Shown here: piece after piece, positions 9,514 to 33,131 of the stretch | How the letters are laid out: every line of letters starts with the position of its first letter | Position numbering within the stretch: position 1 is the first letter of the stretch | Source of the DNA: Acidobacteriota bacterium | GTDB taxonomy: Bacteria > Acidobacteriota > Terriglobia > Bryobacterales > Bryobacteraceae | DNA length: 33,177 nt | Direction: 5' to 3' | Assembly: GCA_003223115.1 (NCBI GenBank) | Contig: QHXW01000032.1 | Coordinates: 7,615 to 40,791, forward strand | Notes under the pieces: generated by a model | The model's database searches: none | Told to the model about the DNA's origin: nothing | What the model saw: the letters and a program-made list of their open reading frames with translations, nothing else | Program-made: the position numbers and the translations under genes

Positions 9514-9849
9514 ATGGGAAAACCAAGTGGTCTCGTCCAGGGCACCCTGGATCTTCTGATACTCAAGACCATTTCACTCGAGCCCAAGCACGGCTGGGCG
9601 ATCGTCCAACGCATCCAGCAAGTATCAGCAGAAGTGCTCCAGGTTCAGCAAGGCTCGCTTTATCCGCCACTGCACCGGTTGGAGCAACAGGGCTGGATCA
9701 AAGCGCACTGGAGTGAGACAGAGGGCGGACGCAAGGCGAAGTTCTACTCATTGACGCGAGCCGGTCGAACACAGATGGAAAAGGAGCTGGCCAACTGGGA
9801 CCGGCTGTCAACGGCGATCAACACCGTCGTCCAGACAAACGAGGCGTGA
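9514..9849 (+). CDS. PadR-family regulator of the ADOP array
   Basis: This 111-residue winged-helix repressor has the acidobacterial PadR pattern: GKPSGLVQGTLDLLILKTIS, HGWAIVQRIQQVSAEVLQVQ (recognition helix region), QGSLYPPLHRLEQQGWIKAH (the SLYP motif) and a wing KAKFYSLTRAGRTQMEKEL. A C-terminal helix for dimer formation follows. PadR proteins repress and respond to small ligands. It is the first gene of the plus-strand operon. Its stop is 3 bases before the first permease, with GAGG in the overlap, so the two are surely cotranscribed. It belongs to the KPSxLVQGTLDLL subtype, as does the regulator at 29606. ATG 9514 is the natural start but has a weak ribosome-binding site; with the short leader this may be near-leaderless. 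Confidence 0.92.
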   Translation: MGKPSGLVQGTLDLLILKTISLEPKHGWAIVQRIQQVSAEVLQVQQGSLYPPLHRLEQQGWIKAHWSETEGGRKAKFYSLTRAGRTQMEKELANWDRLSTAINTVVQTNEA

Positions 9850-9852
9850 GGC

Positions 9853-12480
9853 ATGCGCTGGGCGGACAAGCTTCTGTTGCGACTGCGATCTCTGTTGCGC
9901 CAACATGCAGTCGAACATGAGCTGGACGCCGAACTCCGCTTTCATCTCGAGCAGCAAATCGCAGAAGACCTCGCCGCCGGCATGTCGCCTGAAGAAGCTC
10001 GCGTCGCGGCCCAGCGGAAAATCGGCGGGCTTGTACAAATCAAGGAGGAGTGTCGGGAGGAACGCCGGCTTGACTTGATAGAGAACTGCGTCCGGGATCT
10101 TCGTTACGCCCTGCGCTTGCTGGGCAGGAACCCAAGCTTTACGGCCGTAGCCGTGATGACGCTTGCAATGGGCATCGGTGCCAATACAGCTATCTTTTCC
10201 GTCGTGCGCTCAATCGTGTTCCATCCCTTGCCATTCCGTAACCCGGAACGGCTGGTCTGGATTCGTGACGACCCTTCTGTCCTCTCGGTCACCTTTCAAT
10301 CCTGGCGTCGAATGAGCAACTCCTTCGATGCCCTTGCCGCTTTCTATAATGATTTTTTCACTTACGGTGCTGTCAACTGGACGGGACGCGGCGAGCCGCA
10401 GCGGCTTTCCGGAGTTGAGGTATCGCAAAATCTCTTGCCAATGCTAGGCGTCGAGGCCGCTGTTGGGCGCACGTTCCGCCCTGGCGAGGATCAGCCAGGT
10501 GCGCCTCCAGTGATAGTGCTCAGCCATGGCTTTTGGCAACGCAGCTTCGGCTCTGATCCGAGTGCGATCGGGCAAGTTCTTACGTTAAACGGTAGGAACT
10601 TTACCGTTGCCGGCGTGTTGCCAGCCAGCTTCGATTTTGCGGCCGTATTCTCGCCTGGAGCGCGCGTCGACATTTTCACGCCGTTGATCCTGGACAAACT
10701 CTCCGAGGAGATGTCTCATTACCTGGGCGTCATTGGGCGCCTGCGACCTGGTGTAACGGTTGCGCAAGCGCAGTCGGAAATGGACGCCCTCGGCAAGCAA
10801 CTGAAAGCGGTCGACCCCACGTTGCGTGCAATGGTCCTGCCTATACACGACGCCGTTGTCGGTGAAGTACGAACACCCCTATTGGTGCTGATGAGCGCCG
10901 CGGGCTTCGTACTGCTGATTGCCTGTACGAATTTAGCCAACCTTCTACTCGCACGGGGCACTGCTAGGCAAAGGGAGATAGCCGTCCGTTCAGCCCTGGG
11001 AGCCGGCCAAGCGCGCCTTGTCCTTCAGCTCCTGACAGAGAACATGTTGCTGGCACTCTTGGGCGGCGCCGTGGGTCTGTTGCCGGCATTTTGGCTTGTG
11101 CCGTTCATCAGGACATTGCCGAATTTGCCGTTCCCTCGCCTGAGCCAGGTTCGCATCGATGTCGGCGTTCTCACATTCACGGTTGTGGCCTCAATTGTGA
11201 CCGGCATACTCTTCGGCCTGGTTCCGGCAGCCCAACTCTACGGCTCAGCCATTACCGATCCGTTGAAGAAAGGTGGCCGAAGTCTGAGCGCGGGCAAACA
11301 TCGAGTGCGTGATTTGTTGGTGGTTGCCGAAGTAGCGCTTGCCTTAGTGCTGCTCGCTGGCGCGGGACTTCTAATCCGCAGCTTCTGGCATCTCTTGCAG
11401 GTTAATCCGGGCTTCCGTCCTGAGGGGGTTATCGCGGTGGGGATTGATCCGGGAGGCCAAAAATATGGATGGCTCAGATCACCGGATCGCGGAAGGCGGC
11501 TGGTCAGATTCTTCGATGAAATCCGTCGCAACGTTGCGGGGATACCGGGCGTGGAGGCAGTCGCGCTCACCGACAGCTTGCCGCTTGACCGGGACCGCGG
11601 CTTCTACATCAGGCCCGCAGGACGAACCTACAGAGGACTGAATGAAACACCTCTAGCCTCGATTCACGTCGTGACTCCCGACTATTTCCGCGTTATGGGT
11701 GTTTCATTGAAGCGTGGGCGAACGTTCATGGAGCAGGATACGGCCGACAGTGCCGTGGTGATGCTAGTGAACGAAACGATGTCACGAAAGATTTGGTCTG
11801 GGAAAGACGTTCTTGGGCAATTCGCGGAGATCGCCGGCCGTAAAGCGCAGGTGGTAGGGATAGTCGGCGATGTCCGCCACTCGGCACTGGACCAGCAGGC
11901 AGGAAACGAAGCGTATCTGTTGTTCGCGCAGTATCCCTACACCTTCATGGATTTGGTCGTTCGCACGACCCTGGAGCTGGGGGCGTTAGCCCCCGCTATC
12001 CGGAAGGCGGTTTGGGCGGTCGACCGGGACCAACCTCTGGCACAGTTCCGGACTATACAGCAGATAATCGATCGGACGCTTTCACCCCGCCAGTTCAGCA
12101 TGATGCTCTTGGGCGCATTCGCGGGTCTGGCGATTGTGCTGGCGTCAGTGGGCACTTACGGGGTGATGGCCTATTCCGTTGCGCAACGTACGCATGAGAT
12201 CGGTATCCGCATGGCGCTAGGAGCGGAGCCAGTTGACGCAGTATGCCTTGTTGTGGGGCACGGAATGACATTGGCTGGGATCGGCATTGCCGTTGGATTA
12301 GCGGGAGCGCTAGCGCTGACCCGTTGGCTTGGCAGCCAACTGTATGGCGTTCGCCCGGCTGACCCTCTCAATCTGCTAGGCGTTGCCGCGCTGCTCGTTT
12401 CAGTCGTCGCGCTAGCCAGTTACATGCCAGCGCGCCGAGCTTCGCGCGTGGACCCTATGGTCGCCTTGAGGTACGAGTGA
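9853..12480 (+). CDS. ADOP permease, array member 1
   Basis: This 875-residue membrane protein is intact and the first of the coupled array. The prefix MRWADKLLLRLRSLLRQHAV with ELDAELRFHLEQQIAEDLAA (residues 1-70) is cytosolic and helical. Helix 1 is at about 97-118 ([18 protein letters not shown]). The first MacB-like periplasmic domain includes LGVEAAVGRTFRPGED and VIVLSHGFWQRSFGSDPS. FtsX helices start near 343 (LIACTNLANLLLARGTARQR, then EIAVRSALGAG). The second half repeats the plan, with a periplasmic part (VMGVSLKRGRTF, VGIVGDVRH) and final helices from about 749 (SVGTYGVMAYSVAQRTHEIG). It ends PARRASRVDPMVALRYE. It has no ATP-binding motif. The stop overlaps the next start as TGATG. 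Confidence 0.94.
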   Translation: MRWADKLLLRLRSLLRQHAVEHELDAELRFHLEQQIAEDLAAGMSPEEARVAAQRKIGGLVQIKEECREERRLDLIENCVRDLRYALRLLGRNPSFTAVAVMTLAMGIGANTAIFSVVRSIVFHPLPFRNPERLVWIRDDPSVLSVTFQSWRRMSNSFDALAAFYNDFFTYGAVNWTGRGEPQRLSGVEVSQNLLPMLGVEAAVGRTFRPGEDQPGAPPVIVLSHGFWQRSFGSDPSAIGQVLTLNGRNFTVAGVLPASFDFAAVFSPGARVDIFTPLILDKLSEEMSHYLGVIGRLRPGVTVAQAQSEMDALGKQLKAVDPTLRAMVLPIHDAVVGEVRTPLLVLMSAAGFVLLIACTNLANLLLARGTARQREIAVRSALGAGQARLVLQLLTENMLLALLGGAVGLLPAFWLVPFIRTLPNLPFPRLSQVRIDVGVLTFTVVASIVTGILFGLVPAAQLYGSAITDPLKKGGRSLSAGKHRVRDLLVVAEVALALVLLAGAGLLIRSFWHLLQVNPGFRPEGVIAVGIDPGGQKYGWLRSPDRGRRLVRFFDEIRRNVAGIPGVEAVALTDSLPLDRDRGFYIRPAGRTYRGLNETPLASIHVVTPDYFRVMGVSLKRGRTFMEQDTADSAVVMLVNETMSRKIWSGKDVLGQFAEIAGRKAQVVGIVGDVRHSALDQQAGNEAYLLFAQYPYTFMDLVVRTTLELGALAPAIRKAVWAVDRDQPLAQFRTIQQIIDRTLSPRQFSMMLLGAFAGLAIVLASVGTYGVMAYSVAQRTHEIGIRMALGAEPVDAVCLVVGHGMTLAGIGIAVGLAGALALTRWLGSQLYGVRPADPLNLLGVAALLVSVVALASYMPARRASRVDPMVALRYE

Positions 12481-12482
12481 TG
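12468..12482 (+). promoter_or_regulatory. coupling site, ADOP 1 to ADOP 2
   Basis: GAGG (12468-12471) inside the Leu-Arg codons of the terminal ALRYE lies 8 bases before ATG 12480. The stop TGA (12478-12480) shares its A with that ATG. A GTG at 12477 could also start, but the ATG matches the spacing seen at every other junction. Confidence 0.75.
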
Positions 12483-15164
12483 CGCTGGGCGGACAAGCTT
12501 TTGTTGCTTCTGCGCTCGCTTTTCCGGCACGGGAGCGTTGAACACCAACTGGACGCCGAACTCCGCTTTCATCTCGAGCAACAAATCGAAGAGAACCTGG
12601 CTGCAGGCATGAGCGCTGAAGAAGCCCGCTACGCAGCGCGACGTTCCATCGGTGGCCTCGCACAGATCCAGGAGCAATGCCGCGACACGCGCCGGGTCAA
12701 CTGGATTGCTGATCTCTTGAAGGACCTCCGCTACGGGCTGCGGATTCTGCGAAAAAGTCCCGGCTTCACCGCGGCCGCAGTGCTCTCCTTAGCGCTGGGG
12801 ATCGGGATCAATACAGCGGTGTTCAGCCTGATAAACGCCGTGCTGTTGAGAACGCTGCCCGTGAAGAATCCCGAGCAACTAGTCGTGTTCAACCATCGCA
12901 ACGACATCTCCTATCCCATGTATCAGGATCTACGCGACAGGAACACGGTACTCTCGGGCCTGCTTTGCCGGTTCACCATTCCGGCTAGCATGAGTGCCGA
13001 TGGCCAGACAGAGCGGATTTCGGCAGAGCTGGTGTCTGGAAATTACTTCGAGGTACTGGGGGTCGAGGCGCTAATTGGCCGTACTCTCATGCCTGATGAC
13101 GCACGCGTGCCGGGCGCCCAGCCCGTGGTAGTTCTCAGTAACGCGTTCTGGAGGCGGCGGTTTGGATCCGATCCTAGCGTGGTCGGAAACATGATCCGAA
13201 TCGATGGGCATCCAATGACCGTCGTCGGCATTACGCCGGCCGGATTCCAAGGCACCGAAGTAGGCGTTTCGCCGGACGTTCGCGTGCCGCTCACGATGTA
13301 CCGTGCAATGATCCCGCATTTACCGGGCGAGGTTGACATGAACAGCCGCGGCTGGACATGGCTTGACTTGGTGGGCCGATTGAAAGATGGAGTCAGCGGG
13401 GCACAGGCGGAGTCGGCTTTGAACACGTTTTACGTACATGCCCGTGAAGACGAAGTGCACGGTGTTTTCAAAGATATACCGTCGTCTGCGAAGGCCCAAG
13501 TGCTCTCCGAAAGATTGCGGCTTGAACCGGGCAGCAGGGGTGTTTCCGAGCTTCGCGCGATGTTCTCCCGTCAGCTTTGGGTCTTGATGGCGGCAGTCAG
13601 CGTCGTCCTGTTGATTGCCTGCATGAATGTCGCGAGTCTCTTGCTGGCGAGGGCGATGGCGCGCCAGAGGGAAATTGCTGTGCGGCTCGCGCTGGGTGCC
13701 AGCCGTGTCCGAGTCGTGCGCCAACTCATCACCGAAAGCGTGATGCTGGTGCTCATCGCCACGGGTGCCAGCATTGTCATCGCTCGCTGGGGGAGCGACA
13801 TGCTGGCAAGTTTTCTGCCGGGACGCAGATTGCCGGTTACGTTGAACCTCGCACCGGATTTCCGGGTACTGGGGTTCGCGGTGATTGTTTCCTTGGTGGT
13901 GGGAATTCTCTTTGGCTTGGCGCCGGCATTGCAGCTCACGCGGTCTGCGGTTGCTCCAGCTCTGAAGGCTCAAGCAAGCTTGAGCGGGCTTCGAGGCCCG
14001 TTGACTTTCCGCAAGATCCTCGCGGTAGCTCAAGTCGCATTGTCGTTGCTGCTGCTGGCGAGTGCGGGCTTATTTGTGAGGACCCTTCGAAATCTAAAAG
14101 GTCTCGATCTCGGGTACGACCGGGAGAACGTTCTGCTGCTGGATCTCATTCCATTGCTAAACGGCTACAGCGATGACCAGAGCACCCGGTTTTTCGAACA
14201 GGTAATCGAGCGGGTGAATCAGATACCCGGCGTGCGGTCCGCAAGTCTCGGATCCATGGGGTTTCTGGAACTTGGCTTCCCCAGGGAAGACATTCACATG
14301 GAAGGTCGCAATACGCCGCGAGGAGAGGAGAGGGTCGGTTGGATCAACACTGTAAGTCCAAGGTATTTCAAAACGCTCGGGATTCCAATGCTGCTGGGTC
14401 GCAGCTTCACTGCGCGCGATACGAAATCTGCCCCGAAAGTAGCCATCGTCAATCAAACATTTGCTCGACAGTATTTCGGTGGCGAGAATCCTCTCGGCCG
14501 CCACATCGGGTTCGGGGACACGAACGGCATTGCCATCGTTGGCGTTGTTCGTGATGGCAAATACAAAGACGTGCGCGAGAAAACACCGGAACTGGTGTAT
14601 GTGCCGTTTCAGCAGAATCCAGACCCGGCGATGACTCTGCAGGTGCGCACAGTTGGCGATGCGGCAAAGGTGACGGCGGCCGTCCGGCGCGAGGTGCAGG
14701 TCGTGGATGCGAACGTGCCGGTCTACAAAGTCAGAACACTCGAGGCTCAATTGGATGAATCACTCTCCCAGGAACGTCTGGTCGCGACACTGTCGAGCTG
14801 GTTTGGCGCGTTTGCACTGCTGCTAGCCGCGATCGGTCTGTTTGGGGTGCTGGCCTATAACGTCACACGTAGGACCAACGAAATCGGCCTTCGAATGGCA
14901 CTGGGCGCAGAGCGCGGCGGCGTGATTTGGATGGTATTACGCGAAGCGCTGCTGCTGGTGGGCGTGGGCGTTGCGATTGGCGTGCCGCTCGCGCTTGTGC
15001 TGGCCCAGTCGGTGTCGAGTCTGCTCTATGGACTGAAGCCTACCGATTCGCTGGCCATCTCGGCCGCCGCGGTGATTTTGTTCGTAGTTGCCGCCATAGC
15101 CAGTTACCTGCCCGCGCGGCGAGCTTCGCGCGTGGATCCAATGGTGGCCTTGAGGTACGAGTGA
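12480..15164 (+). CDS. ADOP permease, array member 2
   Basis: This intact 894-residue protein has the same two-half plan as member 1. Its first 60 residues (MRWADKLLLLLRSLFRHGSV, ELDAELRFHLEQQIEENLAA) are nearly the same as those of members 1, 3 and 4. After helix 1 (about 98-118, [17 protein letters not shown]) the periplasmic domains diverge strongly between members, for example HNDISYPMY-type loops here (HRNDISYPMYQDLRDRNTVL). This fits specialisation of the outer part. FtsX helices begin near 363 (LLIACMNVASLLLARAMARQ) and again near 775 (AAIGLFGVLAYNVTRRTNEI, then GLRMALGAE). The end is PARRASRVDPMVALRYE. Its start is translationally coupled to member 1 and its end to member 3. Confidence 0.93.
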   Translation: MRWADKLLLLLRSLFRHGSVEHQLDAELRFHLEQQIEENLAAGMSAEEARYAARRSIGGLAQIQEQCRDTRRVNWIADLLKDLRYGLRILRKSPGFTAAAVLSLALGIGINTAVFSLINAVLLRTLPVKNPEQLVVFNHRNDISYPMYQDLRDRNTVLSGLLCRFTIPASMSADGQTERISAELVSGNYFEVLGVEALIGRTLMPDDARVPGAQPVVVLSNAFWRRRFGSDPSVVGNMIRIDGHPMTVVGITPAGFQGTEVGVSPDVRVPLTMYRAMIPHLPGEVDMNSRGWTWLDLVGRLKDGVSGAQAESALNTFYVHAREDEVHGVFKDIPSSAKAQVLSERLRLEPGSRGVSELRAMFSRQLWVLMAAVSVVLLIACMNVASLLLARAMARQREIAVRLALGASRVRVVRQLITESVMLVLIATGASIVIARWGSDMLASFLPGRRLPVTLNLAPDFRVLGFAVIVSLVVGILFGLAPALQLTRSAVAPALKAQASLSGLRGPLTFRKILAVAQVALSLLLLASAGLFVRTLRNLKGLDLGYDRENVLLLDLIPLLNGYSDDQSTRFFEQVIERVNQIPGVRSASLGSMGFLELGFPREDIHMEGRNTPRGEERVGWINTVSPRYFKTLGIPMLLGRSFTARDTKSAPKVAIVNQTFARQYFGGENPLGRHIGFGDTNGIAIVGVVRDGKYKDVREKTPELVYVPFQQNPDPAMTLQVRTVGDAAKVTAAVRREVQVVDANVPVYKVRTLEAQLDESLSQERLVATLSSWFGAFALLLAAIGLFGVLAYNVTRRTNEIGLRMALGAERGGVIWMVLREALLLVGVGVAIGVPLALVLAQSVSSLLYGLKPTDSLAISAAAVILFVVAAIASYLPARRASRVDPMVALRYE

Positions 15165-15166
15165 TG
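15152..15166 (+). promoter_or_regulatory. coupling site, ADOP 2 to ADOP 3
   Basis: GAGG (15152-15155) is 8 bases before ATG 15164, and TGA (15162-15164) overlaps it. The layout is identical to 12468-12482. Confidence 0.75.
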
Positions 15167-17905
15167 CGCTGGTTGGACAAGCTGCTGCTGCGGTGGCGAT
15201 CGCTGTTTCGCCGACATGACGTAGAACACGAGCTGGATGCGGAACTGCGCTTCCACTTGCAGCAACAAATTGAAGAAAACCTGGCGGCCGGCATGAGCGC
15301 CGAAGAAGCACGCTACGCAGCACGGCGCACCCTTGGCGGAGTGGCACAAATCCAAGAGCAATGCCGCGACGCACGAGCCGTAGCGGTCATCGAGACTCTG
15401 ATGCAGGACGTGCGCTACGGGTTTCGGATGATGCGGCGCAGTCCTACACTTCCCGGTGTGGCTGTCCTCTCGCTGTCGCTCGGCATCGGGGCCAACACCG
15501 CCATCTTCACGCTCATCGACGCAGTTCTCATCAAGATGCTACCGGTCAAAAGCCCCGAGCAACTCGTGGTAATTACCTGGGGCGCCAAGGACTGGCCGAA
15601 GATTGTGGAGTCGCATCGCGGCAGCACCGACCGGGGAAACGGACGCGTAACGGCTTCATCATTTTCTTATCCCACATTCCGACAACTCCGCGCGCGTAAC
15701 TCGGTTCTCTCGGACACCTTCGCATTCGCCGGACTGGAGCAATTGAATGTGAGCGTGGCCGGACATGCCGAAATGGCCAGTGGCCAGCTTGTTTCGGGGA
15801 ATTACTTCTCCGGTTTGGGAGTTCAAGCTCTCGCCGGCCGCACGTTGGTAGACGAAGACGACAAAGAGAGCGCGCAGCCTGTAGCCGTAATCAGCTTTAG
15901 GTTCTGGAATCGACGCTTCGGCCTCGATCCCTCCGCGGTGGGCAAAGCCATCACGGTGAACGGTGTTCCGTTCGTCGTCATCGGCGTGACTCCGCGCAAG
16001 TTCTTTGGAGTAACACCAGGCAACGCCCCGGACCTTTTCATACCGGTGGCAATGCAGCTTCGCGTAGCGCCAGGTTGGGCGGAGCACCGGCCGTCGTTGT
16101 TTCAGGCAAATGACTCCTGGTGGCTCAGGGTCATGGGCCGGTTGCAGCCGGGAGTGAAGCTCCAGCAGGCACGCGCCGCGCTCGACGTGATCTTCCGGCA
16201 AAGCATAACGGCGGGTCTTTCCTCCCTGCCGCCGCCGCAGGAGATGCCGGCGATCGAGGTGAGTTTGGGCAGCAAGGGACTCAGCGACCTGCGGTCCGAG
16301 TTTTCCCAGCCGCTGTTCATCCTCATGATCGTCGTAGGTCTCGTGGTGCTGATCGCTTGTGTGAATGTGGCGAACCTGTTAATGGCGCGAGCCGCGGCAC
16401 GCCAGAAAGAGACCGCCGTGCGCCTGGCCCTTGGTGCCGGCCGGCTGCGTCTTGTCCGCCAGTTGCTCACCGAAAGCGTGTTGCTGGCGATGATGGGCGG
16501 CGCTTTGGGAATGGTGTTGGCCACATCAGGCGAGAGTCTCCTGTTGAGTCTGGTGTCAGGCGGCGAAACACCGCTCGCTCTCGATCTGCGGCCTGACGTT
16601 CGCATCCTGGGCTTTTGTCTGGTTTGCTCGCTCCTCACCGGCATCCTGTTTGGACTGGCGCCCGCTCTGCGCGGAACGCGTGTTGACCTGACACCGGCGC
16701 TAAAAGTGACCGCGGGTATCTTGGGCGCTCACGATGATCGCTCGAAGCGGGGGTTGGGCAAGTTGCTGGTGGCTTCGCAGGTGGCCATGTGTCTCGTGCT
16801 GCTGACCGGCGCCAGTCTGTTCGTGCGCAGCCTCCAGAAGCTGAACGCGATCGATGCCGGATTCAACCGCTACAACCTGTTGTTGTTCAGCATCGATGGA
16901 ACGGCGAGCGGCTACAGAAGTATCCGGTTGGGGACGCTATATCAGGACATACAAGCCCGACTGCAAGGAATACCAGGGGTGCGCTCCGTCAGCCTTTCGC
17001 AGCACAGGCTCATTGGAGGCAGCGCGTCGACCGCTGGCGTGGAGGTCCCAGGCTATAAGCGTCGCCCCAACGAACAAATGAGCTCGTGGATGAACTGGGT
17101 AGGCTCCGGATTTTTCGAGACCATGGGTATTCCGATCCTGATCGGCCGCGGCATAAGCGCCCGCGACAGTGAGACGGCGCCTAAGGTGGTTGTCATCAAT
17201 GAAGCCTTTGCCCGCCACTACTTCGCAAACGAAGTCCCTGTGGGAAAGCGGCTCGGTGACAATACACAAATCGTTGGCATAGTGAAGAACGCCAAATTCA
17301 ACCGTCTGCAACACGAAGCTCCCCCGACTGTGTATGTGCCTTACCTGCAGAACCTCGAGAGTATAGAGGGCATGAATTTCGAAGCTCGCACGGTCGGCAA
17401 TCCCACGGCCATCGTTCGCGACGTGCGCAGTGCCGTGGCAGCTGTGGACCGGAACCTGCCATTGTTCGATGTCAAGACGCAGGTCCAGCAGATCGACGAG
17501 TCTCTGGTTCAAGAACGCCTGTTCGCGAGGCTCTCGACTTTGTTCGGCATGCTGGCGCTGCTATTGGCTTCGATCGGGCTCTACGGCGTGATGTCTTACG
17601 CGGTGGTGCGCCGGACGAGCGAAATCGGGATCCGCATGGCCCTAGGTGCCGAGTGCGGCGAAGTGCTTTGGCTGGTGCTGCGAGAAACGATGCTTGTGGT
17701 CACAATCGGACTCGGCATTGGCCTGCCGGCGGCCGTGGCTTCTACCCGTTTGATTCGCAATCGACTGTTCGGCCTCGAGCCGGCCGATCCGCTTGCCATC
17801 TCGGGTGCGACGTTGGTGCTGATCGTGGTTACAGTTCTTGCCGGCTATCTGCCCGCGCGGCGCGCCTCGCGCGTAGACCCGATGATCGCCTTAAGGTACG
17901 AGTGA
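15164..17905 (+). CDS. ADOP permease, array member 3
   Basis: This is the longest member of the array, 913 residues and intact. The prefix is MRWLDKLLLRWRSLFRRHDV and ELDAELRFHLQQQIEENLAA. The pre-helix motif is altered from SPGFTAV to SPTLPGVAVLSLSLGIGANT. The first periplasmic domain carries about 30 extra residues near 140-170 (WGAKDWPKIVESHRGSTDRG), absent from members 1, 2 and 4. FtsX helices start near 382 (VLIACVNVANLLMARAAARQ) and near 794 (ASIGLYGVMSYAVVRRTSEI, GIRMALGAE). The protein ends PARRASRVDPMIALRYE. An in-frame upstream extension into member 2 is rejected because the TGATG junction with its ribosome-binding site marks the start. Confidence 0.93.
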   Translation: MRWLDKLLLRWRSLFRRHDVEHELDAELRFHLQQQIEENLAAGMSAEEARYAARRTLGGVAQIQEQCRDARAVAVIETLMQDVRYGFRMMRRSPTLPGVAVLSLSLGIGANTAIFTLIDAVLIKMLPVKSPEQLVVITWGAKDWPKIVESHRGSTDRGNGRVTASSFSYPTFRQLRARNSVLSDTFAFAGLEQLNVSVAGHAEMASGQLVSGNYFSGLGVQALAGRTLVDEDDKESAQPVAVISFRFWNRRFGLDPSAVGKAITVNGVPFVVIGVTPRKFFGVTPGNAPDLFIPVAMQLRVAPGWAEHRPSLFQANDSWWLRVMGRLQPGVKLQQARAALDVIFRQSITAGLSSLPPPQEMPAIEVSLGSKGLSDLRSEFSQPLFILMIVVGLVVLIACVNVANLLMARAAARQKETAVRLALGAGRLRLVRQLLTESVLLAMMGGALGMVLATSGESLLLSLVSGGETPLALDLRPDVRILGFCLVCSLLTGILFGLAPALRGTRVDLTPALKVTAGILGAHDDRSKRGLGKLLVASQVAMCLVLLTGASLFVRSLQKLNAIDAGFNRYNLLLFSIDGTASGYRSIRLGTLYQDIQARLQGIPGVRSVSLSQHRLIGGSASTAGVEVPGYKRRPNEQMSSWMNWVGSGFFETMGIPILIGRGISARDSETAPKVVVINEAFARHYFANEVPVGKRLGDNTQIVGIVKNAKFNRLQHEAPPTVYVPYLQNLESIEGMNFEARTVGNPTAIVRDVRSAVAAVDRNLPLFDVKTQVQQIDESLVQERLFARLSTLFGMLALLLASIGLYGVMSYAVVRRTSEIGIRMALGAECGEVLWLVLRETMLVVTIGLGIGLPAAVASTRLIRNRLFGLEPADPLAISGATLVLIVVTVLAGYLPARRASRVDPMIALRYE

Positions 17906-17907
17906 TG
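17893..17907 (+). promoter_or_regulatory. coupling site, ADOP 3 to ADOP 4
   Basis: AAGG (17893-17896) is 8 bases before ATG 17905, and TGA (17903-17905) overlaps it. The Leu codon is TTA here instead of TTG, which still leaves a usable Shine-Dalgarno core. Confidence 0.75.
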
Positions 17908-20526
17908 CGCTGGGCTGACAAACTTCGGTTGCGTTTGCGCTCGCTTTTTCGGCACGGGAGCGTGGAGCAGGAGCTGGATGCCGAGCTGCGATTCCATCTG
18001 GAGCAGCAGATTCAAGAAAACCTGGCGGCCGGCATGAGCCCTGATGAAGCCCGCTATGCGGCGCGCCGCACGATCGGCGGAATCGAACAGATCAGAGAAG
18101 AGTGCCGTGATGCGCGTAGCGTGAGGTTTATCGAAACGTTACTGCAAGATCTCCGGTACGCACTACGCATGATGCGTCGCAGTCCGGGGTTCACCGCGGT
18201 GGCCGTGCTCTCGCTGGCGCTCGGCATTGGCGCCAACACCGCGATTTTTTCCTTTGCCAACGCCATCCTGCTTAAGAAGCTGCCAGTCACTGATCCGGAG
18301 CGTTTGATCACAATCGGGTGGTCGGTGAACTATCCCTTTTTCCGCGAACTCGACCGGCGCAACGGGGTACTTGCCGGTCTTGCAGGCCGTTTTTCCATCG
18401 ATCTGAATCTGACGGCCGAAGGCTCGACCGAGCGGATGCATGGCGAGCTAGTCAGCGGCAGTTACTTCCCCGTACTCGGCGTGGGCGCTGCTCTCGGCCG
18501 GGTCCTGGCCGAAGAGGACGACGGCGCCGAAGACGCCCATCCGGTGTGCGTCATCAGCTATGACCTCTGGCAGAAAAAGTTCGCAGGCGCCCCGGACGTT
18601 CTGCATAAAGCCATCCTTCTCAATGCACGGCCGTTTCAGATTGTCGGTGTGAGCGAGCGCGGTTTTCGCGGCGGGGCGCTGCAGGGCCGTTTCGATGTGC
18701 ACGTACCCATGTCCATGACCGGGTTTTTCGAGGGAGAGAAACGCGACTCGACCGGCTGGAGCTGGCTGCAGATGATCGGTCGTCTGAAACCAGGCATCAC
18801 ACGCGTGCTGGCTGAAGCCAATATTCAGGCTGTAGGCACTCACATCGACAAGGAACAGGGCCACGAGAAGTGGAAAGCCTCGTACCGGCTGTTTCCGGGA
18901 GACCAGGGCTTTGACGATCACCGCGACGAGTTTGAGAAACCCATTCTGGTTCTACTCGCGGTCGTGGCCAGCGTCCTGTTGATAGCCTGCGCGAACGTCG
19001 CCAACCTGCTGCTCGCGCGAGCTGTCGAGCGTCAACGGGAAATCGCCGTGCGACTCGCGCTGGGAGCTACGCGGGCGCGTCTGGTTCGGCAGTTATCGCT
19101 CGAGAGCCTGGTGCTTTCCGGAGTGGGCGGAATGGTTGGTTTTCTGCTGTCCTTCTGGATGGTGCAGGCTCTGGTCTACTTCTTACCGAGCGACAACTTT
19201 GCGATCGGGCTGCGCCCCGACCTGCTTGCGCTGGGATTTACAGCGGCCCTCTCGATCATCACTGGGCTGCTCTTTGGCTTGGCTCCGGCCTGGCAGGTCA
19301 CGCGGCCCGACGTCGCGCCGGCCCTGAAGCAGGAAATGGCGGGGCGAGCATGGGCCAGTCGAGCGCTTCTGCGGCGAGCGCTCGTCGTGTGCCAGATCGG
19401 CGCATCACTGGTGCTGGTGTTCGGCGCTGGCCTCTTTGCACGGACGTTGCGCAATCTACGCACTGCCGATCTCGGATTTCGCCCGGAACAGATCATTCTG
19501 ATGACCATGGATCCATCGCTCAGCGGCTATAAGGAGGCCGACACAGCGCTGCTGTACAACCGGCTGCTCGAAACAATCAGAAAAGTGCCGGGTGTTCGAG
19601 CTGCCAGCCTCGCGAATATGACCGTTCTTTCGGGAGGAATGTTCGCCGCCGACGTCGGCGTGACTGGCTACACGCCCCAGGACCACGAGCCGAACTACTA
19701 CCTCAATTGGGTAAGCGCAGACTATTTCAAAACATTGGGAACACCGATTCTGCAGGGTCGCGATTTCAACCGGTGGGACCGCAAAGGTGCGCAGCCCGTC
19801 GCCATTGTGAATCAGCGGTTCGCAACCCACTTCTGGCCCGGGCAGAACGCGATTGGCAAGCGCTTCCGCTGGGGAGGGTGGAAGTCCGACGTCGAGATTG
19901 TGGGGGTGGTGTCGAACACCAAGTACCAAACGATTCGCGAAGAGCCGCAGTTCATCTATTACCTGCCGGTGACGCAGCAGCACGTCTCGGGGCTGACATT
20001 ATACGTTCGCACGGTGGGCGATTCCGGCCGGATGATCTCCAGCGTACGCGATATCGTGCGCGCGCTTGATCCCCGGCTGCCGGTGTACAACATCAAGACG
20101 CTCGAAGCACAGATTGATTCGCAGTTATCGCAGGAACGCATTCTGGCATCCCTTTCCACATTCTTCAGCACCGCGGCCACGCTGCTGGCAGCGCTCGGAC
20201 TTTACGGAGTGGTGGCGTACTCCGTCAAACGACGTCACCGGGAAATCGGCATCCGCATGGCACTCGGTGCTCGTGGCCGGGACGTCATGCTGCTCTTCGC
20301 GCGGGAAAACCTGGCGACGGTTTTGTTGGGCATTGGGATCGGCATCGCGTGTGCTTACGCCAGCGCCAAGTACTGTGCCAGTCTTCTGTATGGTTTGCGC
20401 TACAACGACATCGCCACGCTCGCAGTGGCTAGTGTACTGATGCTGGCGGTCGCACTATTGGCGTCATTTTTGCCCGCACGCCGAGCCTCGCGCGTGGACC
20501 CTGTAATGGCCTTGAGGTACGAGTGA
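17905..20526 (+). CDS. ADOP permease, array member 4
   Basis: This intact 873-residue protein starts MRWADKLRLRLRSLFRHGSV and closely resembles member 2 at DNA level over the first 100 bases. Helix 1 (about 97-118) reads [20 protein letters not shown]. The first periplasmic domain has VGAALGRVLAEEDDGAEDAH, and FtsX helices begin near 343 (LLIACANVANLLLARAVERQ). The second half begins after RRALVVCQIGASLVLVFGAG. The final FtsX block near 753 is LGLYGVVAYSVKRRHREIGI, where the usual RT-x-EIG is RHREIG. It ends PARRASRVDPVMALRYE. It is coupled to member 3 upstream and to a broken fifth member downstream, so it is effectively the last functional gene of the operon. Confidence 0.93.
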   Translation: MRWADKLRLRLRSLFRHGSVEQELDAELRFHLEQQIQENLAAGMSPDEARYAARRTIGGIEQIREECRDARSVRFIETLLQDLRYALRMMRRSPGFTAVAVLSLALGIGANTAIFSFANAILLKKLPVTDPERLITIGWSVNYPFFRELDRRNGVLAGLAGRFSIDLNLTAEGSTERMHGELVSGSYFPVLGVGAALGRVLAEEDDGAEDAHPVCVISYDLWQKKFAGAPDVLHKAILLNARPFQIVGVSERGFRGGALQGRFDVHVPMSMTGFFEGEKRDSTGWSWLQMIGRLKPGITRVLAEANIQAVGTHIDKEQGHEKWKASYRLFPGDQGFDDHRDEFEKPILVLLAVVASVLLIACANVANLLLARAVERQREIAVRLALGATRARLVRQLSLESLVLSGVGGMVGFLLSFWMVQALVYFLPSDNFAIGLRPDLLALGFTAALSIITGLLFGLAPAWQVTRPDVAPALKQEMAGRAWASRALLRRALVVCQIGASLVLVFGAGLFARTLRNLRTADLGFRPEQIILMTMDPSLSGYKEADTALLYNRLLETIRKVPGVRAASLANMTVLSGGMFAADVGVTGYTPQDHEPNYYLNWVSADYFKTLGTPILQGRDFNRWDRKGAQPVAIVNQRFATHFWPGQNAIGKRFRWGGWKSDVEIVGVVSNTKYQTIREEPQFIYYLPVTQQHVSGLTLYVRTVGDSGRMISSVRDIVRALDPRLPVYNIKTLEAQIDSQLSQERILASLSTFFSTAATLLAALGLYGVVAYSVKRRHREIGIRMALGARGRDVMLLFARENLATVLLGIGIGIACAYASAKYCASLLYGLRYNDIATLAVASVLMLAVALLASFLPARRASRVDPVMALRYE

Positions 20527-20528
20527 TG
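20514..20528 (+). promoter_or_regulatory. coupling site, ADOP 4 to broken ADOP 5
   Basis: GAGG (20514-20517) is 8 bases before ATG 20526, and TGA (20524-20526) overlaps it. The site is intact although the gene it serves is broken. Confidence 0.7.
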
Positions 20529-21270
20529 CGTTGGGCTGAAAGGCTTCGCTTGCGCGTGCGGTCACTGATTCGTGGGCGCCGCCTCGAGCAAGAACTCGAC
20601 GCCGAACTGCAATTTCACCTGGAGCAACAGATCCAAGAGAACCTGGCGGCCGGCATGAGCCTCGAAGATGCTCGTTATGCCGCACAACGCGTAGTTGGCG
20701 GCCTCACACAGATGAAGGAGGAATGCCGGGGACATGCGACGAGTCAACCTTATCGAGACATTGTTCTAGGACATCCGATATGGCTGGCGCATGCTGCACA
20801 ACAGTCCGGGAGTCACTACCGTCGCAATCGTGTCACTGGCTCTCGGCATCGGCGCAAACGCTGCAATTTTCACCATCATCGACGCCGTCATGCTTAAGAT
20901 GCTGCCGATCAAAAATCCAAGTGAACTGGTGCAACTGAGCCGCTACTCTCAGGGAGAACACGGAAACTTCTCCTATCCGTGCTACGAGCAGCTTCGCAAT
21001 CAGAACCACGTTCTAGCGGGTGTTTTCGCGGTGTCCTATCCGAGCGGGTTTAAGATGCGCGTCGCTGGAGAAACCGAGCGAGTACTATATCAATACGTTA
21101 CCGGAAATTACTACGCCGTCCTCGGCGTGAACGCGATTGCCGGCCGCGTCATCCTGCCTGATGACGACAAGCTCACCGGAGCGCCATCGGAGCCGGTGGC
21201 CGTGCTGAGCTACGGCTTCTGGAAGCAGCGGTTTGCCGCGGATCCATCGGTCATCGGTCGGACGGCGTAT
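20526..21270 (+). pseudogene. ADOP permease, array member 5, truncated
   Basis: The gene starts normally (MRWAERLRLRVRSLIRGRRL, ELDAELQFHLEQQIQENLAA). A run of four G at 20728-20731, one too many, shifts the frame after KEECR. In the correct frame DMRRVNLIETLF is followed by TAG at 20767-20769 (Gln in relatives). Then [36 protein letters not shown] and the first periplasmic domain up to QRFAADPSVIGRTAYL read normally. Similarity ends abruptly at about 21265-21270, roughly 600 residues short. The DNA beyond is the end of a minus-strand ADOP fragment. So there are three lesions: insertion, nonsense and truncation at a rearrangement junction. Confidence 0.88.
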
Positions 21271-21725
21271 CTGTATCCAGGAGTTTTCGTCGCCCTGCGA
21301 GTAGGTTTCAGAGAATTGGACTAACTGTTCCGGCCGTTCGACCGGGAGCGCCTTCAGGACCACAGCATTCAGCAGACTAAAGATCGCGGTGTTTGCTCCG
21401 ATTCCGAGCGCCAACGACCATAGCACTGCCGTCGTGACGCCAGGATTCTTCGCCATCATCCGCCGCCATGGGGGATGTCCTGCAGCCAGACTTCCAGCCA
21501 TCGCCATCCCCACATTTCGCGGCTGCCTCCTTCAGCCCAGTGTCGTTTCCAAACAGGCGTTTGCGCTGCATACCGTGCGGAGTCCTGATCAATTCCGGAA
21601 TTCTGATACTCCCGCTGCCGCAACTCTTTGTGGAACCTTATCTCTTGTTCGAGATCACCCTCAAACTTTTGGCGGTTGACGAAGAATCGAAGTCTTGGCC
21701 AGAGTTCACTCACCCAGCTATTCAT
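21271..21725 (-). pseudogene. ADOP permease, 5' end only, several frameshifts
   Basis: Read leftwards from ATG 21725 this gives MNSWVSELWPRLRFFVNRQK, LEQEIRFHKELRQREYQNSG and DQDSARYAAQ. After frame changes near 21480-21560 come RLFGNDTGLKEAA, SREMWGWRWLEVWLQDI and [51 protein letters not shown]. Similarity ends near 21277-21282, where the plus-strand member 5 also ends. Its ATG overlaps the stop of the upstream ADOP (21718) by 8 bases, so the two minus-strand genes were once coupled like the plus-strand array. The prefix is of the SELW/EQEIRFH kind, matching its upstream neighbour. Confidence 0.85.
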
Positions 21726-24465
21726 GGCGTAAAGCCTGCATCGGGTCCACGCGTCCAGCGCGCTGCGCGGGGATCCACGCCGCCACTGTTGCGACTGCCA
21801 GCATCAACACGCTCGCCGCAATGAAGCTCACAGGGTCGTTGGGTTCGATGCCATAGAGTGCTTCCCGAACCACTTGCGTCATGGCGAGCGCCGTAGGGAC
21901 TCCTATCCCGATCCCGGTCGCCACCATGAACAGACTGCCGCGCAGCACCATCCACAGAACGGCGTTGCACCCGGCGCCGAGCGCCATGCGAATGCCGATT
22001 TCCGATGTCCGCCGCGTCACAGTGTACGCCATGACACCATACAACCCAATAGCCGCGAGCAGCGCCGCGATCAAGCCGAAGGAGCCGATCAGACCGGCGG
22101 CCAGTCGCTCCGGACTTAGCGACATGCGGATTTGTTGTTCCTGCGTCAGTAGATCGGCTACGGGAACATCGCGATCCGTCTCGGTCACGGCCCGTCGTAC
22201 CGCGTGAGCAATCGATAGCGGAGGTACCGCGGTACGAACTTCAAAGGTGGCTTGCCCTACCCAATCGGCGTTTTGCAAGTAGCTGAGATATGCGGTCGGC
22301 GGAATCGCGCTTCTCAGATCAGTGTACTTGGCATCCCTACACACACCGATGATTTGGACGGTATCTTTTGCGACTTTGGGCTGTCCGGTCAGCTGGCCGA
22401 AGTAGAAAATCTTGCCCAGCGGATTGTTTCCGGCAAAGTAATCCCGCACAAATGTTTCGTTCACAACCGCGACCATGGGAGCATTCGGCCTGTCCCCCTC
22501 ATTCAGGTCCCGCCCGATCAGTATCGGAATGCCCATGGCAGCGAGGAAACCGCTGTCAGCCACCATCTCATATGTCCGTGCCGATTCCTTTCCCTTGGGA
22601 CTGTATCCCGGAACCGAAATATCGCTGTTACTCATGCTGCCTGCAATCAGAGGAAACATTGAGAACGTAGCGGCTCTTACGCCAGGAATGGCCGAGACTT
22701 TCTTTCTGATCCGCTCGTACACTGCCAGCAGTTTACCTGCCTCATATCCGCTACGCGAGCCGTCCACGGTGAAGATCAGCAGTTGCTGCGATTGGAACCC
22801 CGGATCGACTTTTGCGAGGTTGACGAGCGTGCGTATGAACAGTCCCGCGCCCGCGAGAAGCAGTGTGGACAGAGCTACCTGCCCAACGATTAGGCTGCGG
22901 CTTAACCGCGAATGCGGGGTCGCACCGAATCCGCCCGTTGCCCCGTCCTTCAGTGAAGGCGTCAGGTTGATGCGTGTCGCGCGGAAGGCCGGCGCAAGCC
23001 CGAATATCAGTGCCGTCAGTAGTGCGGTTGCGACGGTAAACAGCAATGTTCGGGCATCCACTTGAACATCGAGAGTAAGAGGATTTTTGCCGCCCGCCAA
23101 GGCGAGAACAAGTTTTGACAGGGGGGAGGCGAAAGTCAGTCCCGCCCCCGCTCCTAAGCCTGCTAGCAGAAGACTCTCGGTCAAGAGCTGCCGGACGAGC
23201 CGCCAGCGTCCGGCGCCGATGGAAAGGCGCACCGCCATCTCCCGCCGTCGTGCTGTCCCTCGCGCCAGCAGCAGATTGGCAAGATTCGCGCAGGCGATCA
23301 GCAGCACGAAGGCCACTACGCCGCTCAGAATGAATAGCGGCCCCGATGCATTTTCGCGCCACATCGGGACCCCACCCGCACCGTTCTCGACGACTGGTCG
23401 CCATGGATGCCGTTTCTGTTCTGGTTTATCCTCATACCGCGCACTGGCCCGCGCCATCACTACATCCAGAGCACCCCACGCCTGGCGATCCGGAACACCC
23501 GGCCGCAGCCGCCCCAGAATCTGCACCCACCAAGAATCCTCTCTTCCGAGCGAGTACTCTTTTCGCCCGTAGGCTTCTGCAAGCGCCATGGGTAGGATCA
23601 GGTCGTTGCCTTCGCGGGGCTCAAGTCCCAAGAATGGCTTCGGAATCACACCAGCGATGGTCACAGGACGACCATTCACTCTGATGGTGCGGCCAACTAT
23701 GGCCCGATCCAGGCCGAATCTTCGCTCCCAATACCGATACCCGATGACCGCGACCGCAGGCGCTCCCGCTCGATCGTCTTCCGGCGACAGCATTCGTCCG
23801 AGGAGCGGATTCACTCCCGCTCCTCTGAAAAAGTTGCCCGTGACAAAAAGTGCGCCCGCGTAGTGGCTCTCTCCTGCAGCGAGGACCGTTAAGTCTGCGT
23901 GAGCGAAGCCCATCACATCGGAAAACTGCGGCACGCTGGTCGCCAGCAGCTGGTACATGGGATACGAGAACGAGCTGTGCACCTCGATATTGTGCAGCGT
24001 GGTTGAATAACCGCTTCCCGTAGACATGGGAATTCTCGGTTCGCCCGTCCACAGCACCAGACGCAACTGTTCGGGATTGCGAACAGGCATGGACTTCAGG
24101 AGAATCGCATTCACCACGCTGAAAATCGCGGTATTCGCCCCGATGCCGATCGCTAGCGATAGAATCGCGACGGCTGTGAACGCCGGGCTCTTCCGTAACA
24201 TGCGCGCTCCGTAGCGCAGGTCCTGTAAGAAGGTTTCGAGCCAGCGCCATCCCCAAACGTCACAGCTTCTTTCCTTCATGAGCAACGCGTTGCCAAAGCG
24301 CTGCTGCGCGGTGCTGCGAGCATCGTCAGGCGCGACGCCGGTTTTCATCTGCTCCTCCGCTCTCAGTTCCACGTGCAGGCGCATCTCTTCTTCCAGATCG
24401 CGGTCGTTCTGACGGCGCCGCACCAGCGCCCGGAGCCTTCGCCAAATTTCACCGATCCATTCCAT
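21718..24465 (-). CDS. ADOP-family duplicated orphan permease
   Basis: This intact 915-residue permease starts at ATG 24465, 11 bases after the PadR stop, with GAGAG upstream. A longer in-frame start lies inside the PadR gene and is rejected. The prefix is MEWIGEIWRRLRALVRRRQN with LEEEMRLHVELRAEEQ and CDVWGWRWLETF. Helix 1 is [20 protein letters not shown]. The first periplasmic domain has a long loop (WTGEPRIPMSTGSGYSTTLH), then NPLLGRMLSPEDDRAGAP. FtsX helices begin near residue 373 (LIACANLANLLLARGTARRR) and near 798 (IGLYGVMAYTVTRRTSEIGI). The C-terminus is PAQRAGRVDPMQALRHE, slightly different from the PARRASRVDPM-ALRYE of the array. It is followed by an overlapping broken ADOP. No ATPase is linked. 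Confidence 0.93.
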   Translation of the reverse strand: MEWIGEIWRRLRALVRRRQNDRDLEEEMRLHVELRAEEQMKTGVAPDDARSTAQQRFGNALLMKERSCDVWGWRWLETFLQDLRYGARMLRKSPAFTAVAILSLAIGIGANTAIFSVVNAILLKSMPVRNPEQLRLVLWTGEPRIPMSTGSGYSTTLHNIEVHSSFSYPMYQLLATSVPQFSDVMGFAHADLTVLAAGESHYAGALFVTGNFFRGAGVNPLLGRMLSPEDDRAGAPAVAVIGYRYWERRFGLDRAIVGRTIRVNGRPVTIAGVIPKPFLGLEPREGNDLILPMALAEAYGRKEYSLGREDSWWVQILGRLRPGVPDRQAWGALDVVMARASARYEDKPEQKRHPWRPVVENGAGGVPMWRENASGPLFILSGVVAFVLLIACANLANLLLARGTARRREMAVRLSIGAGRWRLVRQLLTESLLLAGLGAGAGLTFASPLSKLVLALAGGKNPLTLDVQVDARTLLFTVATALLTALIFGLAPAFRATRINLTPSLKDGATGGFGATPHSRLSRSLIVGQVALSTLLLAGAGLFIRTLVNLAKVDPGFQSQQLLIFTVDGSRSGYEAGKLLAVYERIRKKVSAIPGVRAATFSMFPLIAGSMSNSDISVPGYSPKGKESARTYEMVADSGFLAAMGIPILIGRDLNEGDRPNAPMVAVVNETFVRDYFAGNNPLGKIFYFGQLTGQPKVAKDTVQIIGVCRDAKYTDLRSAIPPTAYLSYLQNADWVGQATFEVRTAVPPLSIAHAVRRAVTETDRDVPVADLLTQEQQIRMSLSPERLAAGLIGSFGLIAALLAAIGLYGVMAYTVTRRTSEIGIRMALGAGCNAVLWMVLRGSLFMVATGIGIGVPTALAMTQVVREALYGIEPNDPVSFIAASVLMLAVATVAAWIPAQRAGRVDPMQALRHE

Positions 24466-31797: not shown

Positions 31798-32892
<1,095 letters not shown>

Positions 32893-33131
32893 GCACGCCT
32901 CCCAGGTGCCGGATTCGTGTATCATACATCCGGCAGCGAGCACGAGAACGGTCAGTGCCCCTTCGAGAAGACTAGCGCGTGAACTAGTCCGTGTCATGGC
33001 AGTGCTGGACCTGAACAGCATTGTAATGCTACTCAGCGGGAAGTCATGGCTGTTCTGAAACTGCGGTGTGCGACCGATTCGTTAGTGGGTTCAGAAAGCA
33101 ATCACAATAGCTGTCGCGAACAACCCTACCA

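What the first reader, a model, noticed from the sequence alone, without database searches (positions are those of the whole stretch)
9853..21270. Five ADOP permeases in one translationally coupled tandem array
Four intact genes and a truncated fifth follow one PadR with no gap. Every junction is TGATG, and the ribosome-binding core (GAGG or AAGG) lies 8 bases before each ATG inside the codons for the conserved C-terminal ALRYE. So the constant C-terminal peptide also serves as a ribosome-loading signal, which makes each permease a self-contained unit that can be duplicated head to tail and still be translated. Near-identical ends with divergent periplasmic middles suggest a modular, diversifying set rather than simple gene dosage. 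ADOPs are known as duplicated orphan permeases; an array of this depth with a built-in coupling cassette may be undescribed.
Basis: partly seen in the sequence, partly recalled or inferred. Interest (0 to 1): 0.8.

Follow-up and report, generated by a model that had tools for sequence, protein, structure and literature searches.

The report
One regulator, many swappable permeases
A row of soil-bacterium membrane-pump genes behind one regulator tends to share the same short front piece, matched to that regulator, while the rest of each pump looks freely swapped between rows, which hints that the front piece is the plug by which different pumps report to one gene switch.

Summary
Four intact ADOP permeases and a broken fifth follow one PadR. 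All four ADOP-ADOP junctions are TGATG, with GAGG or AAGG 8 nt before the ATG inside the ALRYE codons. The in-gene Shine-Dalgarno is real: AGG at 9/9 such junctions in this genome, against 13/79 ADOP ends with no ADOP after them and 0/9 at 8-nt-overlap junctions (8 of 9 the same peptide). It is ordinary, though: coupled LolC-LolD-like pairs show it too, and a 20-gene ADOP run exists elsewhere in the phylum.

The unexpected result is modularity. Neighbouring ADOPs tend to share a ~75-codon N-terminal cap and a short tail, but their ~780-codon bodies are no more alike than random pairs. Recombinant genes with switches in or just after the cap exist. Cap similarity tracks the array's PadR (r 0.65; internal genes 0.77); body similarity does not (about 0). 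The cap is distantly HAAS-like; HAAS is a published PadR-partner domain, also reported fused to FtsX/MacB_PCD permeases.

Best reading: a HAAS-PadR-type module in which exchangeable permease bodies carry a plug for one PadR. Swapping is shown; signalling through the cap is inferred. New variant of a known kind.

The parts
9514..9849 (+). PadR-family regulator at the head of the array (TIGR03433)
   Evidence: 147.6 bits against cut-off 101.8
9841..9855 (+). PadR-ADOP1 junction: GAGG, 8 nt, ATG; stop-start gap 3 nt
   Evidence: sequence
9853..12480 (+). ADOP 1, intact (875 aa)
   Evidence: TIGR03434 911 bits, cut-off 622
9853..10077 (+). cap of ADOP 1 (perm_prefix_1, HAAS-like), about codons 1-75
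12468..12482 (+). junction 1: GAGG TACGAGTG ATG (TGATG stop-start)
12480..15164 (+). ADOP 2, intact (894 aa); modelled structure
   Evidence: TIGR03434 954 bits; AF2 pLDDT 88
12480..12704 (+). cap of ADOP 2
15152..15166 (+). junction 2: GAGG TACGAGTG ATG
15164..17905 (+). ADOP 3, intact (913 aa)
   Evidence: TIGR03434 918 bits
15164..15388 (+). cap of ADOP 3; a related contig joins its first ~110-135 nt to an ADOP 4 body
17893..17907 (+). junction 3: AAGG TACGAGTG ATG
17905..20526 (+). ADOP 4, intact (873 aa)
   Evidence: TIGR03434 920 bits
17905..18129 (+). cap of ADOP 4
20514..20528 (+). junction 4: GAGG TACGAGTG ATG
20526..21273 (+). fifth ADOP, broken: cap intact, frameshift after it, truncated in the first periplasmic domain
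21184..21707 (-). remnant of a minus-strand ADOP that appears to begin in an 8-nt overlap with the end of 21718-24465, facing the broken fifth gene
21718..24465 (-). neighbouring ADOP with a different cap (start codon estimated); a PadR match lies at 24486-24785 (-)
6390..9008 (-). divergent ADOP; the PadR match at 9031-9329 (-) is broken, with ADOP remnants at 5529-6222 (-)

Best explanation
The array is a PadR-headed operon of orphan FtsX-type permeases with a modular build. Each gene has a front cap of about 75 codons, a helical, presumably cytosolic domain distantly related to the PadR-partner domain HAAS, and a short ALRYE tail that carries the ribosome-loading site for the next gene. Cap and tail tend to be shared along an array, and the cap matches the array's PadR. 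The transmembrane and periplasmic body (about codons 80-870) is exchangeable and has been swapped by recombination at or just after the cap. Shown: coupling-type junctions, shared caps with unrelated bodies, recombinant genes, cap-PadR matching. Inferred: the cap docks on PadR, so several different permease bodies can report to, or be controlled with, one repressor, and coupled translation makes them together.
For: Neighbours in arrays (17 pairs, body nt identity <0.60) exceed non-neighbours by 0.18-0.21 nt identity over codons 1-75, 0.08 over 76-90, within -0.02 to +0.02 from 91 to 860, 0.04 over 861-872, 0.08-0.15 over the last 18. Permutation 0/10000; without the window's genome (6 pairs) 0/10000 for nt, 5/10000 for synonymous identity. 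Trees of 37 array genes: junction type changes 12 times on the cap tree and 23 on the body tree (200 shuffles each: minimum 22, mean 25.4 and 25.6); the body tree rejects one clade for the nine genes of TGATG-type arrays (AU p 2e-60). Recombinants: C330 gene = ADOP 3 start, ADOP 4 body, switch between nt 109 and 136; C184/C429, C282/C429 and a cross-species pair C85/G002. PadR identity against cap r 0.646 (Mantel 0/2000), against body -0.008 (1075/2000); internal genes against the head PadR: cap 0.773 (0/1000), body -0.061 (833/1000); G010 alone (2 contigs, 13 heads) 0.670 (1/2000). Cap vs HAAS: hhalign 71%, P 3.7e-5, three controls 0.2-1.3%; three ADOP-like permeases elsewhere have a cap over the HAAS cut-off. 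HAAS-PadR dyad with FtsX/MacB_PCD fusions is in print (PMC11237479, passages).
Against: Cap sharing is a tendency: in 4 of 18 neighbouring pairs cap nt identity is only 0.55-0.60 (non-adjacent pairs average 0.48-0.50), and two 8-nt-overlap arrays (C282, C137) have a head cap of another type than the gene behind it. The tail does not track PadR (r 0.08 to 0.13). No Pfam HAAS hit for 10 caps at E up to 10, none in the window's genome, no DUF1048-type entry among the 5 PDB sequence hits. No contact between cap and PadR was tested; caps could stay matched by linkage and within-array conversion. The four window caps alone are rejected as one clade (AU p 0.0045), because caps are shared with four other loci, and the TGATG clade on the cap tree has support 24 only. 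The EIGIRMALGA motif is nearly invariant, which fits ATP-driven transport better than a pure receptor. The window's genome is a fragmented assembly (594 contigs, 4.8% contamination).
Confidence: 0.55

Rival explanations
1. Recombination by-product: the conserved TM1 motif just behind the cap and the conserved tail are merely the best homology for crossovers, so bodies are exchanged there and caps stay next to the PadR by linkage. The cap has no PadR-specific role.
For: Switches lie close to the most conserved DNA (codons 91-120, nt identity 0.61-0.65 even in random pairs); ADOP 3 and 4 share a 26-nt exact block at the C330 switch; cap and PadR are neighbours in head genes.
Against: The PadR-cap correlation is at least as strong in internal genes, which are not next to PadR (0.773 against 0.646), and falls at the domain edge (0.43 to 0.08 across codon 75) rather than gradually. 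Within-array conversion could still produce this.
Confidence: 0.3
2. Plain head-to-tail duplication of whole permease genes: bodies diverged fast, caps and tails slowly under selection.
For: Codirectional arrays, mostly with one junction type each; one set of genuinely similar tandem copies (80-87% nt) in G003:C26.
Against: Bodies of neighbours are no more alike than random pairs and do not group by array on a tree (31 changes, shuffle mean 30.5). Synonymous identity between neighbours is higher in caps than in bodies, while in pairs with closely related bodies the cap can be far more diverged (dS 0.53 against about 0.15; 0.77 against 0.16-0.28).
Confidence: 0.08
3. One reading: an ADOP-specific coupling cassette that makes each permease a self-contained duplicating unit.
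For: TGATG with AGG at 9/9 such junctions in this genome; codon choice follows the junction (0/9 AGG at 8-nt-overlap junctions).
Against: The same cassette occurs at LolC-LolD-like and permease-permease pairs in other acidobacteria. Of 32 ADOP-ADOP junctions found in this genome, 23 are not TGATG. A scan of genome contigs for TGATG followed by MRW gave 22 stretches, of which one was acidobacterial, from the window's genus.
Confidence: 0.07

Closest known systems
ADOP family (TIGR03434) with PadR TIGR03433
   Same: All four intact genes and the PadR pass the curated cut-offs.
   Different: Cap-PadR matching and body exchange were not found in the paper searches made.
HAAS-PadR dyad (PMC11237479, passages read)
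   Same: A helical domain N-terminal to a multi-TM protein beside a stand-alone PadR; that paper lists a fusion to FtsX-like TM with MacB/PCD domains.
   Different: Several proteins with related caps share one PadR and have unrelated bodies.
MacB, LolCDE, YbbAP and BceAB permeases
   Same: Fold: best Foldseek matches are YbbAP chain A (9ge6, E 2.4e-17), then MacB 5gko, LolCDE, BceAB.
   Different: ADOPs are classed as lacking an adjacent ATPase (recalled from the family description) and carry the cap.
Termination-reinitiation at overlapping genes (PMC6728339, PMC10666635; passages read)
   Same: TGATG overlap with an SD inside the upstream gene.
   Different: Only that the site lies in a family-wide conserved C-terminal peptide.
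hsdS specificity-domain shuffling (recalled, not searched)
   Same: Works alike: constant segments flank exchangeable variable parts.
   Different: Unrelated proteins; no inverted repeats or invertase were looked for here.

Membership tests
ADOP (TIGR03434) | score above the curated cut-off, two MacB_PCD-FtsX modules | tested here: met
   911-954 bits against 622.3 for the four genes; two MacB_PCD and two FtsX stretches in each of ADOPs 1, 2 and 4, the three scanned against Pfam
ADOP (TIGR03434) | no adjacent ABC ATPase gene | not tested
   no ATPase domain among the window proteins scanned, but not every ORF was scanned; the feature itself is recalled
PadR, acidobacterial (TIGR03433) | score above cut-off, next to an ADOP | tested here: met
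   147.6 bits against 101.8; ADOP starts 3 nt after its stop
HAAS domain (PF22564) | match to the curated family model | tested here: not met
   no HAAS hit for 10 caps at E up to 10; 0 hits in the own genome, 19 of 119 phylum genomes have one
HAAS domain (PF22564) | profile-level homology | tested here: inconclusive
   hhalign 71%, P 3.7e-5, FGN over LGDP, controls 0.2-1.3% (HAAS profile of 18 of the 26 hits, three of the 18 below cut-off); bridging ADOP-like permeases L197, L208, L212 over the cut-off, L212 only with its neighbours in the frame
HAAS-PadR dyad | stand-alone PadR gene beside the HAAS-like protein | tested here: met
   the window array has one; 47 of 87 cap-bearing ADOPs in five genomes are directly headed by a PadR in the stretches held, 13 more are internal genes of such arrays
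HAAS-PadR dyad | HAAS passes a signal to PadR | not testable with these tools
   needs binding and expression tests; co-variation only
TGATG termination-reinitiation pairs | overlapping stop-start with SD in the upstream gene | tested here: met
   4 of 4 ADOP-ADOP junctions in the window; duplex energy <= -3.5 at 9/9 in the genome
TGATG termination-reinitiation pairs | translation of the downstream gene depends on the upstream gene | not testable with these tools
   reporter experiment needed

The most novel reading that the evidence does not exclude
ADOP arrays are modular one-component receptor banks. Each ADOP body senses or exports a different envelope signal or substrate; the HAAS-like cap is a plug specific to the operon's PadR. 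Evolution plugs new bodies into a fixed PadR-cap circuit by in-frame recombination, so one repressor gains new inputs without re-wiring. This would be a histidine-kinase-free counterpart of the Bce flux-sensing transporters and would explain why these acidobacteria keep dozens of 'orphan' permeases with dozens of PadRs.
Probability: 0.25. Interest if true: 0.85.

Novelty: new variant of a known kind. Interest (0 to 1): 0.62.

Why it matters
ADOPs form a very large paralogous family (at least 67 in this genome), and I found no paper on their function in the searches made. The cap-PadR match gives them a testable role: the cap as the link between permease and regulator, the body as the variable input. 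It also gives an independent, evolutionary test of the proposed HAAS-PadR dyad, and shows how paralogous membrane genes can be re-assorted while operon position, translation and regulator pairing are kept. The Shine-Dalgarno-in-ALRYE point alone would be a footnote.

Tried and rejected
Depth of the array as the novelty: rejected, deeper runs exist. Coupling cassette as ADOP-specific: rejected. Positive selection on periplasmic domains: omega <0.4 in every region measured in seven pairs with closely related bodies; older pairs are saturated. Origin of neighbours' bodies by local duplication: rejected on trees and profiles. Prefix-less arrays as a control: G115 (21 genes compared, 20 of them the compact run) and G049 (16) show no N-terminal neighbour effect, only a weak tail effect. 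RNA families and tRNAs: none in the window. Pfam scan of caps at E up to 10: no HAAS, only unrelated weak hits. PDB sequence search with the cap profile: 5 hits, none relevant. Cap-only AlphaFold model: pLDDT 72.9, pTM 0.47, not used for a fold search. AU tests on the body tree for the G010 pair and for the four window genes did not finish. In one search the first hhalign attempt failed; repeated.

Rows dropped or chosen before counts: C-termini whose residue at that place is not Arg (5 of 84 ends without a following ADOP); pairs with body nt identity 0.60 or more (1 of 18 neighbouring pairs), or body aa identity 0.65 or more; cap-bearing genes shorter than 1,500 nt. The group of five 8-nt-overlap genes tested leaves out the two head genes of those arrays and was named after the cap tree had been seen, so its p value is not a clean test; the nine TGATG-type genes include C433, whose junction reads TGACG. 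The HAAS profile left out the permease-borne hits and short hits. In one search I first set aside four sites of a 122-bp repeat (L065, L066, L067/L085), which are uncoupled but AGR; with all 37 sites counted the contrast is 22/24 against 4/13, p 2.4e-4, and outside the genus 13/15 against 4/12, p 0.007. The TGATG search required the ALRYE pattern, so coupled permeases with another C-terminus are not in the table. Genomes G001, G002, G003, G010 were sampled by the stretches I chose, not exhaustively. The profile used 300 of the 1,278 non-adjacent pairs. The match list was cut by the tool and was used only to spot long arrays.
Full report
What is there. The window lies in a 9.14-Mb, 594-contig assembly. 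The only acidobacterial hit of a genome contigs junction scan is a contig titled Bryobacteraceae bacterium JOPF025 (JASHOO010000303.1, 3,555 bases). It agrees in length and junction place with G001:C199, and G001 is in the window's genus. A PadR (TIGR03433) at 9514-9849 is followed by four intact ADOP permeases (TIGR03434; 911-954 bits, cut-off 622) at 9853-20526 and a broken fifth to about 21273. The four ADOP-ADOP junctions are TGATG with GAGG (three) or AAGG (one) 8 nt upstream of the ATG inside ALRYE. The PadR-ADOP1 junction is TGAGGCATG, also with GAGG at 8 nt.

Is the embedded ribosome site more than chance? In 116 distinct ADOP 3' ends of this genome, the Arg codon of the terminal motif is AGG at 9/9 TGATG junctions, 13/79 ends with no ADOP behind them (Arg only; Fisher 8.7e-7) and 0/9 junctions with an 8-nt ATGAGTAA-type overlap, although 8 of those 9 encode the same ALRYE (Fisher 4e-5). 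AGG makes up 6.8% of Arg codons in ADOP bodies. Predicted pairing with the 16S tail reaches -3.5 kcal/mol at 9/9, 26/84 and 0/9. The codon therefore follows the junction, not the peptide. Common descent of junctions contributes, so these are not nine independent events.

It is not peculiar to ADOPs. The pattern ALRYE-TGATG was sought in 297 genomes of the phylum and 41 relatives (the own genome is in both), giving 37 distinct sites. In 24 an ORF of 79 aa or more that reads as a real gene starts at that ATG, and 22 of these have AGG/AGA; of 13 without such an ORF, 4 do (p 2.4e-4). The 15 coupled sites outside the genus are eight LolC-LolD-like pairs, two ADOP-ADOP pairs, four other permease-permease pairs and one oxidoreductase-like partner. 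ADOP and permease partners were checked with a home-made ADOP profile; the other names come from reading the translations. Coupled overlapping genes with an SD inside the upstream gene are a general phenomenon (PMC6728339, PMC10666635; passages read). Depth is not unusual either: a run of 20 codirectional ADOPs lies on G115:C29, and G049:C10 has 16 with larger gaps. The exact TGATG-MRW junction itself is rare: 22 stretches in genome contigs, one of them acidobacterial; the window's own genome may be left out by that tool.

Modularity, tested. The four window genes are 40-49% identical to each other. Over 87 cap-bearing ADOPs from five genomes of the window's family (47 from the window's own), 17 neighbouring pairs exceed non-neighbours by 0.18-0.21 nt identity in codons 1-75 and 0.08 in 76-90. 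The difference stays between -0.02 and +0.02 from codon 91 to 860, is 0.04 at 861-872, then 0.08 and 0.15 in the last 18 codons (300 of 1,278 non-adjacent pairs sampled). The excess holds at synonymous sites and without the window's genome. It includes G010, an assembly of two contigs, where one pair has caps 86% and bodies 49% identical. It is a tendency, not a rule: 4 of 18 neighbouring pairs have caps only 0.55-0.60 alike. On trees of 37 array genes the body carries no array signal (31 changes, shuffle mean 30.5) while the cap does (22, shuffle minimum 27). For junction type the numbers are 23 (body; shuffle minimum 22, mean 25.6) and 12 (cap; shuffle minimum 22). The nine genes of TGATG-type arrays are rejected as one clade on bodies (AU p 2e-60) and form one branch on caps, though with support 24 only. 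Five downstream genes of 8-nt-overlap arrays behave likewise (body p 9e-4; cap support 99), but that group was named after seeing the cap tree, and two head genes of those arrays have another cap. The four window caps alone are rejected as a clade (p 0.0045), because four other loci share those caps.

Recombinants. Contig C330 carries a diverged, frameshifted copy of ADOP 2 followed, across TGATG, by a gene that matches ADOP 3 up to nt 109 (all but one diagnostic site) and ADOP 4 from nt 136 (a few exceptions), with the switch inside a 26-base block identical in ADOPs 3 and 4. C307 has a PadR and ADOP 1 collinear with the window at 87% nt, then a different permease (about 40% identical to any window gene) after the junction. 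C184 and C429 share a cap at 98% and differ in body (46%); C282 and C429 share a body (92%) and differ in cap. A body of C85 is 81% identical to one in another species (G002) behind unrelated caps. Switches lie at about nt 110-260; one further case lies near nt 450-500. Some of these contigs come from a fragmented assembly; the cross-species case and G010 do not depend on it alone.

What the cap tracks. For 47 cap-bearing ADOPs headed by a PadR (1,026 pairs), PadR identity correlates with cap identity (r 0.646, Mantel 0/2000) and not with body (-0.008, 1075/2000) or tail (0.083). For 13 internal genes, which are not next to the PadR, the head PadR correlates with the cap at 0.773 (0/1000), with the body at -0.061 and with the tail at 0.128 (654 pairs). 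G010 alone (13 heads) gives 0.670 (1/2000), the window's genome (21 heads) 0.644 (0/2000). Along the head genes r is 0.36-0.49 for codons 1-75 and at most 0.09 from codon 76 on. In the model of ADOP 2 (pLDDT 88.1) the cap is helices 3-15, 17-41, 46-57 and 60-71, before helices 75-92 and 94-122, the latter taken here as TM1. NCBIfam calls the cap permease prefix domain 1.

Link to HAAS. PMC11237479 (passages read) defines HAAS, a three-helix domain with a GxP motif that, in its words, always occurs with a stand-alone PadR-like protein. It reports fusions to FtsX-like TM with MacB/PCD domains and proposes HAAS-PadR as an alternative to two-component systems. Our caps do not reach the Pfam HAAS model. 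A profile comparison gives 71% and P 3.7e-5 with the cap's FGN over HAAS LGDP, against 0.2-1.3% in three controls. In other acidobacteria, ADOP-like permeases carry a cap over the HAAS cut-off (L197, L208, L212). I therefore call the cap HAAS-like, not a proven HAAS.

How it most likely works. Shown: one PadR; several permeases of unrelated body; related caps along most arrays, matched to that PadR; coupling-type junctions. Inferred: the cap contacts PadR, so PadR activity depends on, or co-varies with, any of the permeases. The fold resembles YbbAP, MacB, LolCDE and BceAB, and the EIGIRMALGA stretch is nearly invariant in 58 sequences, which suggests that ATP-driven transport by an ATPase in trans is retained. 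A transporter that reports to its regulator is then the natural picture, as in Bce systems (recalled). Whether coupling serves equal dosage or assembly of mixed complexes is open; overlapping genes are enriched for complex subunits (PMC10666635, passages).

Novelty. In the paper library (PMC, open licences only) searches for ADOP/Acidobacteria/permease, 'duplicated orphan permease', TIGR03434, and acidobacterial PadR/permease/MacB combinations listed nothing on ADOP organisation (listings seen, hits judged by title and abstract start). A Solibacter paralogy paper (PMC3174227, passages read) has no occurrence of 'PadR' or 'gene conversion' in its main text. ADOPs, PadR pairing and HAAS-FtsX fusions are known; body exchange behind PadR-matched caps is, as far as searched, not described.

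Noticed in passing
L067, L085 (G127:C1:2549513-2549774), L065, L066: The 3' end of an FtsX-type permease is repeated in 122-bp tandem units, each ending ALRYE-stop, with TGATG opening a 40-aa ORF; seen in G127 and G292, and a single such end in G260, all of one genus.
   Followed up: no
G115:C29:80000-148565 (L086-L089): A run of 20 codirectional cap-less ADOPs; several spacers hold similar low-complexity text (CTTGGGTCTTTGGTC-like).
   Followed up: partly
window 21184-21707 (-) and 20526-21273 (+): Two truncated ADOPs from convergent arrays meet near 21.2-21.3 kb, as if a deletion had joined the ends of both arrays.
   Followed up: partly
window 9031-9329 (-): A PadR broken into two pieces in different frames, one with a stop, lies divergent to the intact PadR, in front of the ADOP at 6390-9008.
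   Followed up: partly
L105 (G003:C26): Three tandem ADOPs 80-87% identical in nucleotides: an ordinary recent duplication, unlike the window array.
   Followed up: no
window 30246-33021 (-): PD40 beta-propeller protein next to a Ser/Thr protein kinase.
   Followed up: no
L015 (C433), near locus position 2597: Junction TGACG instead of TGATG: the expected ATG is ACG, so the overlapping GTG is probably the start codon.
   Followed up: no
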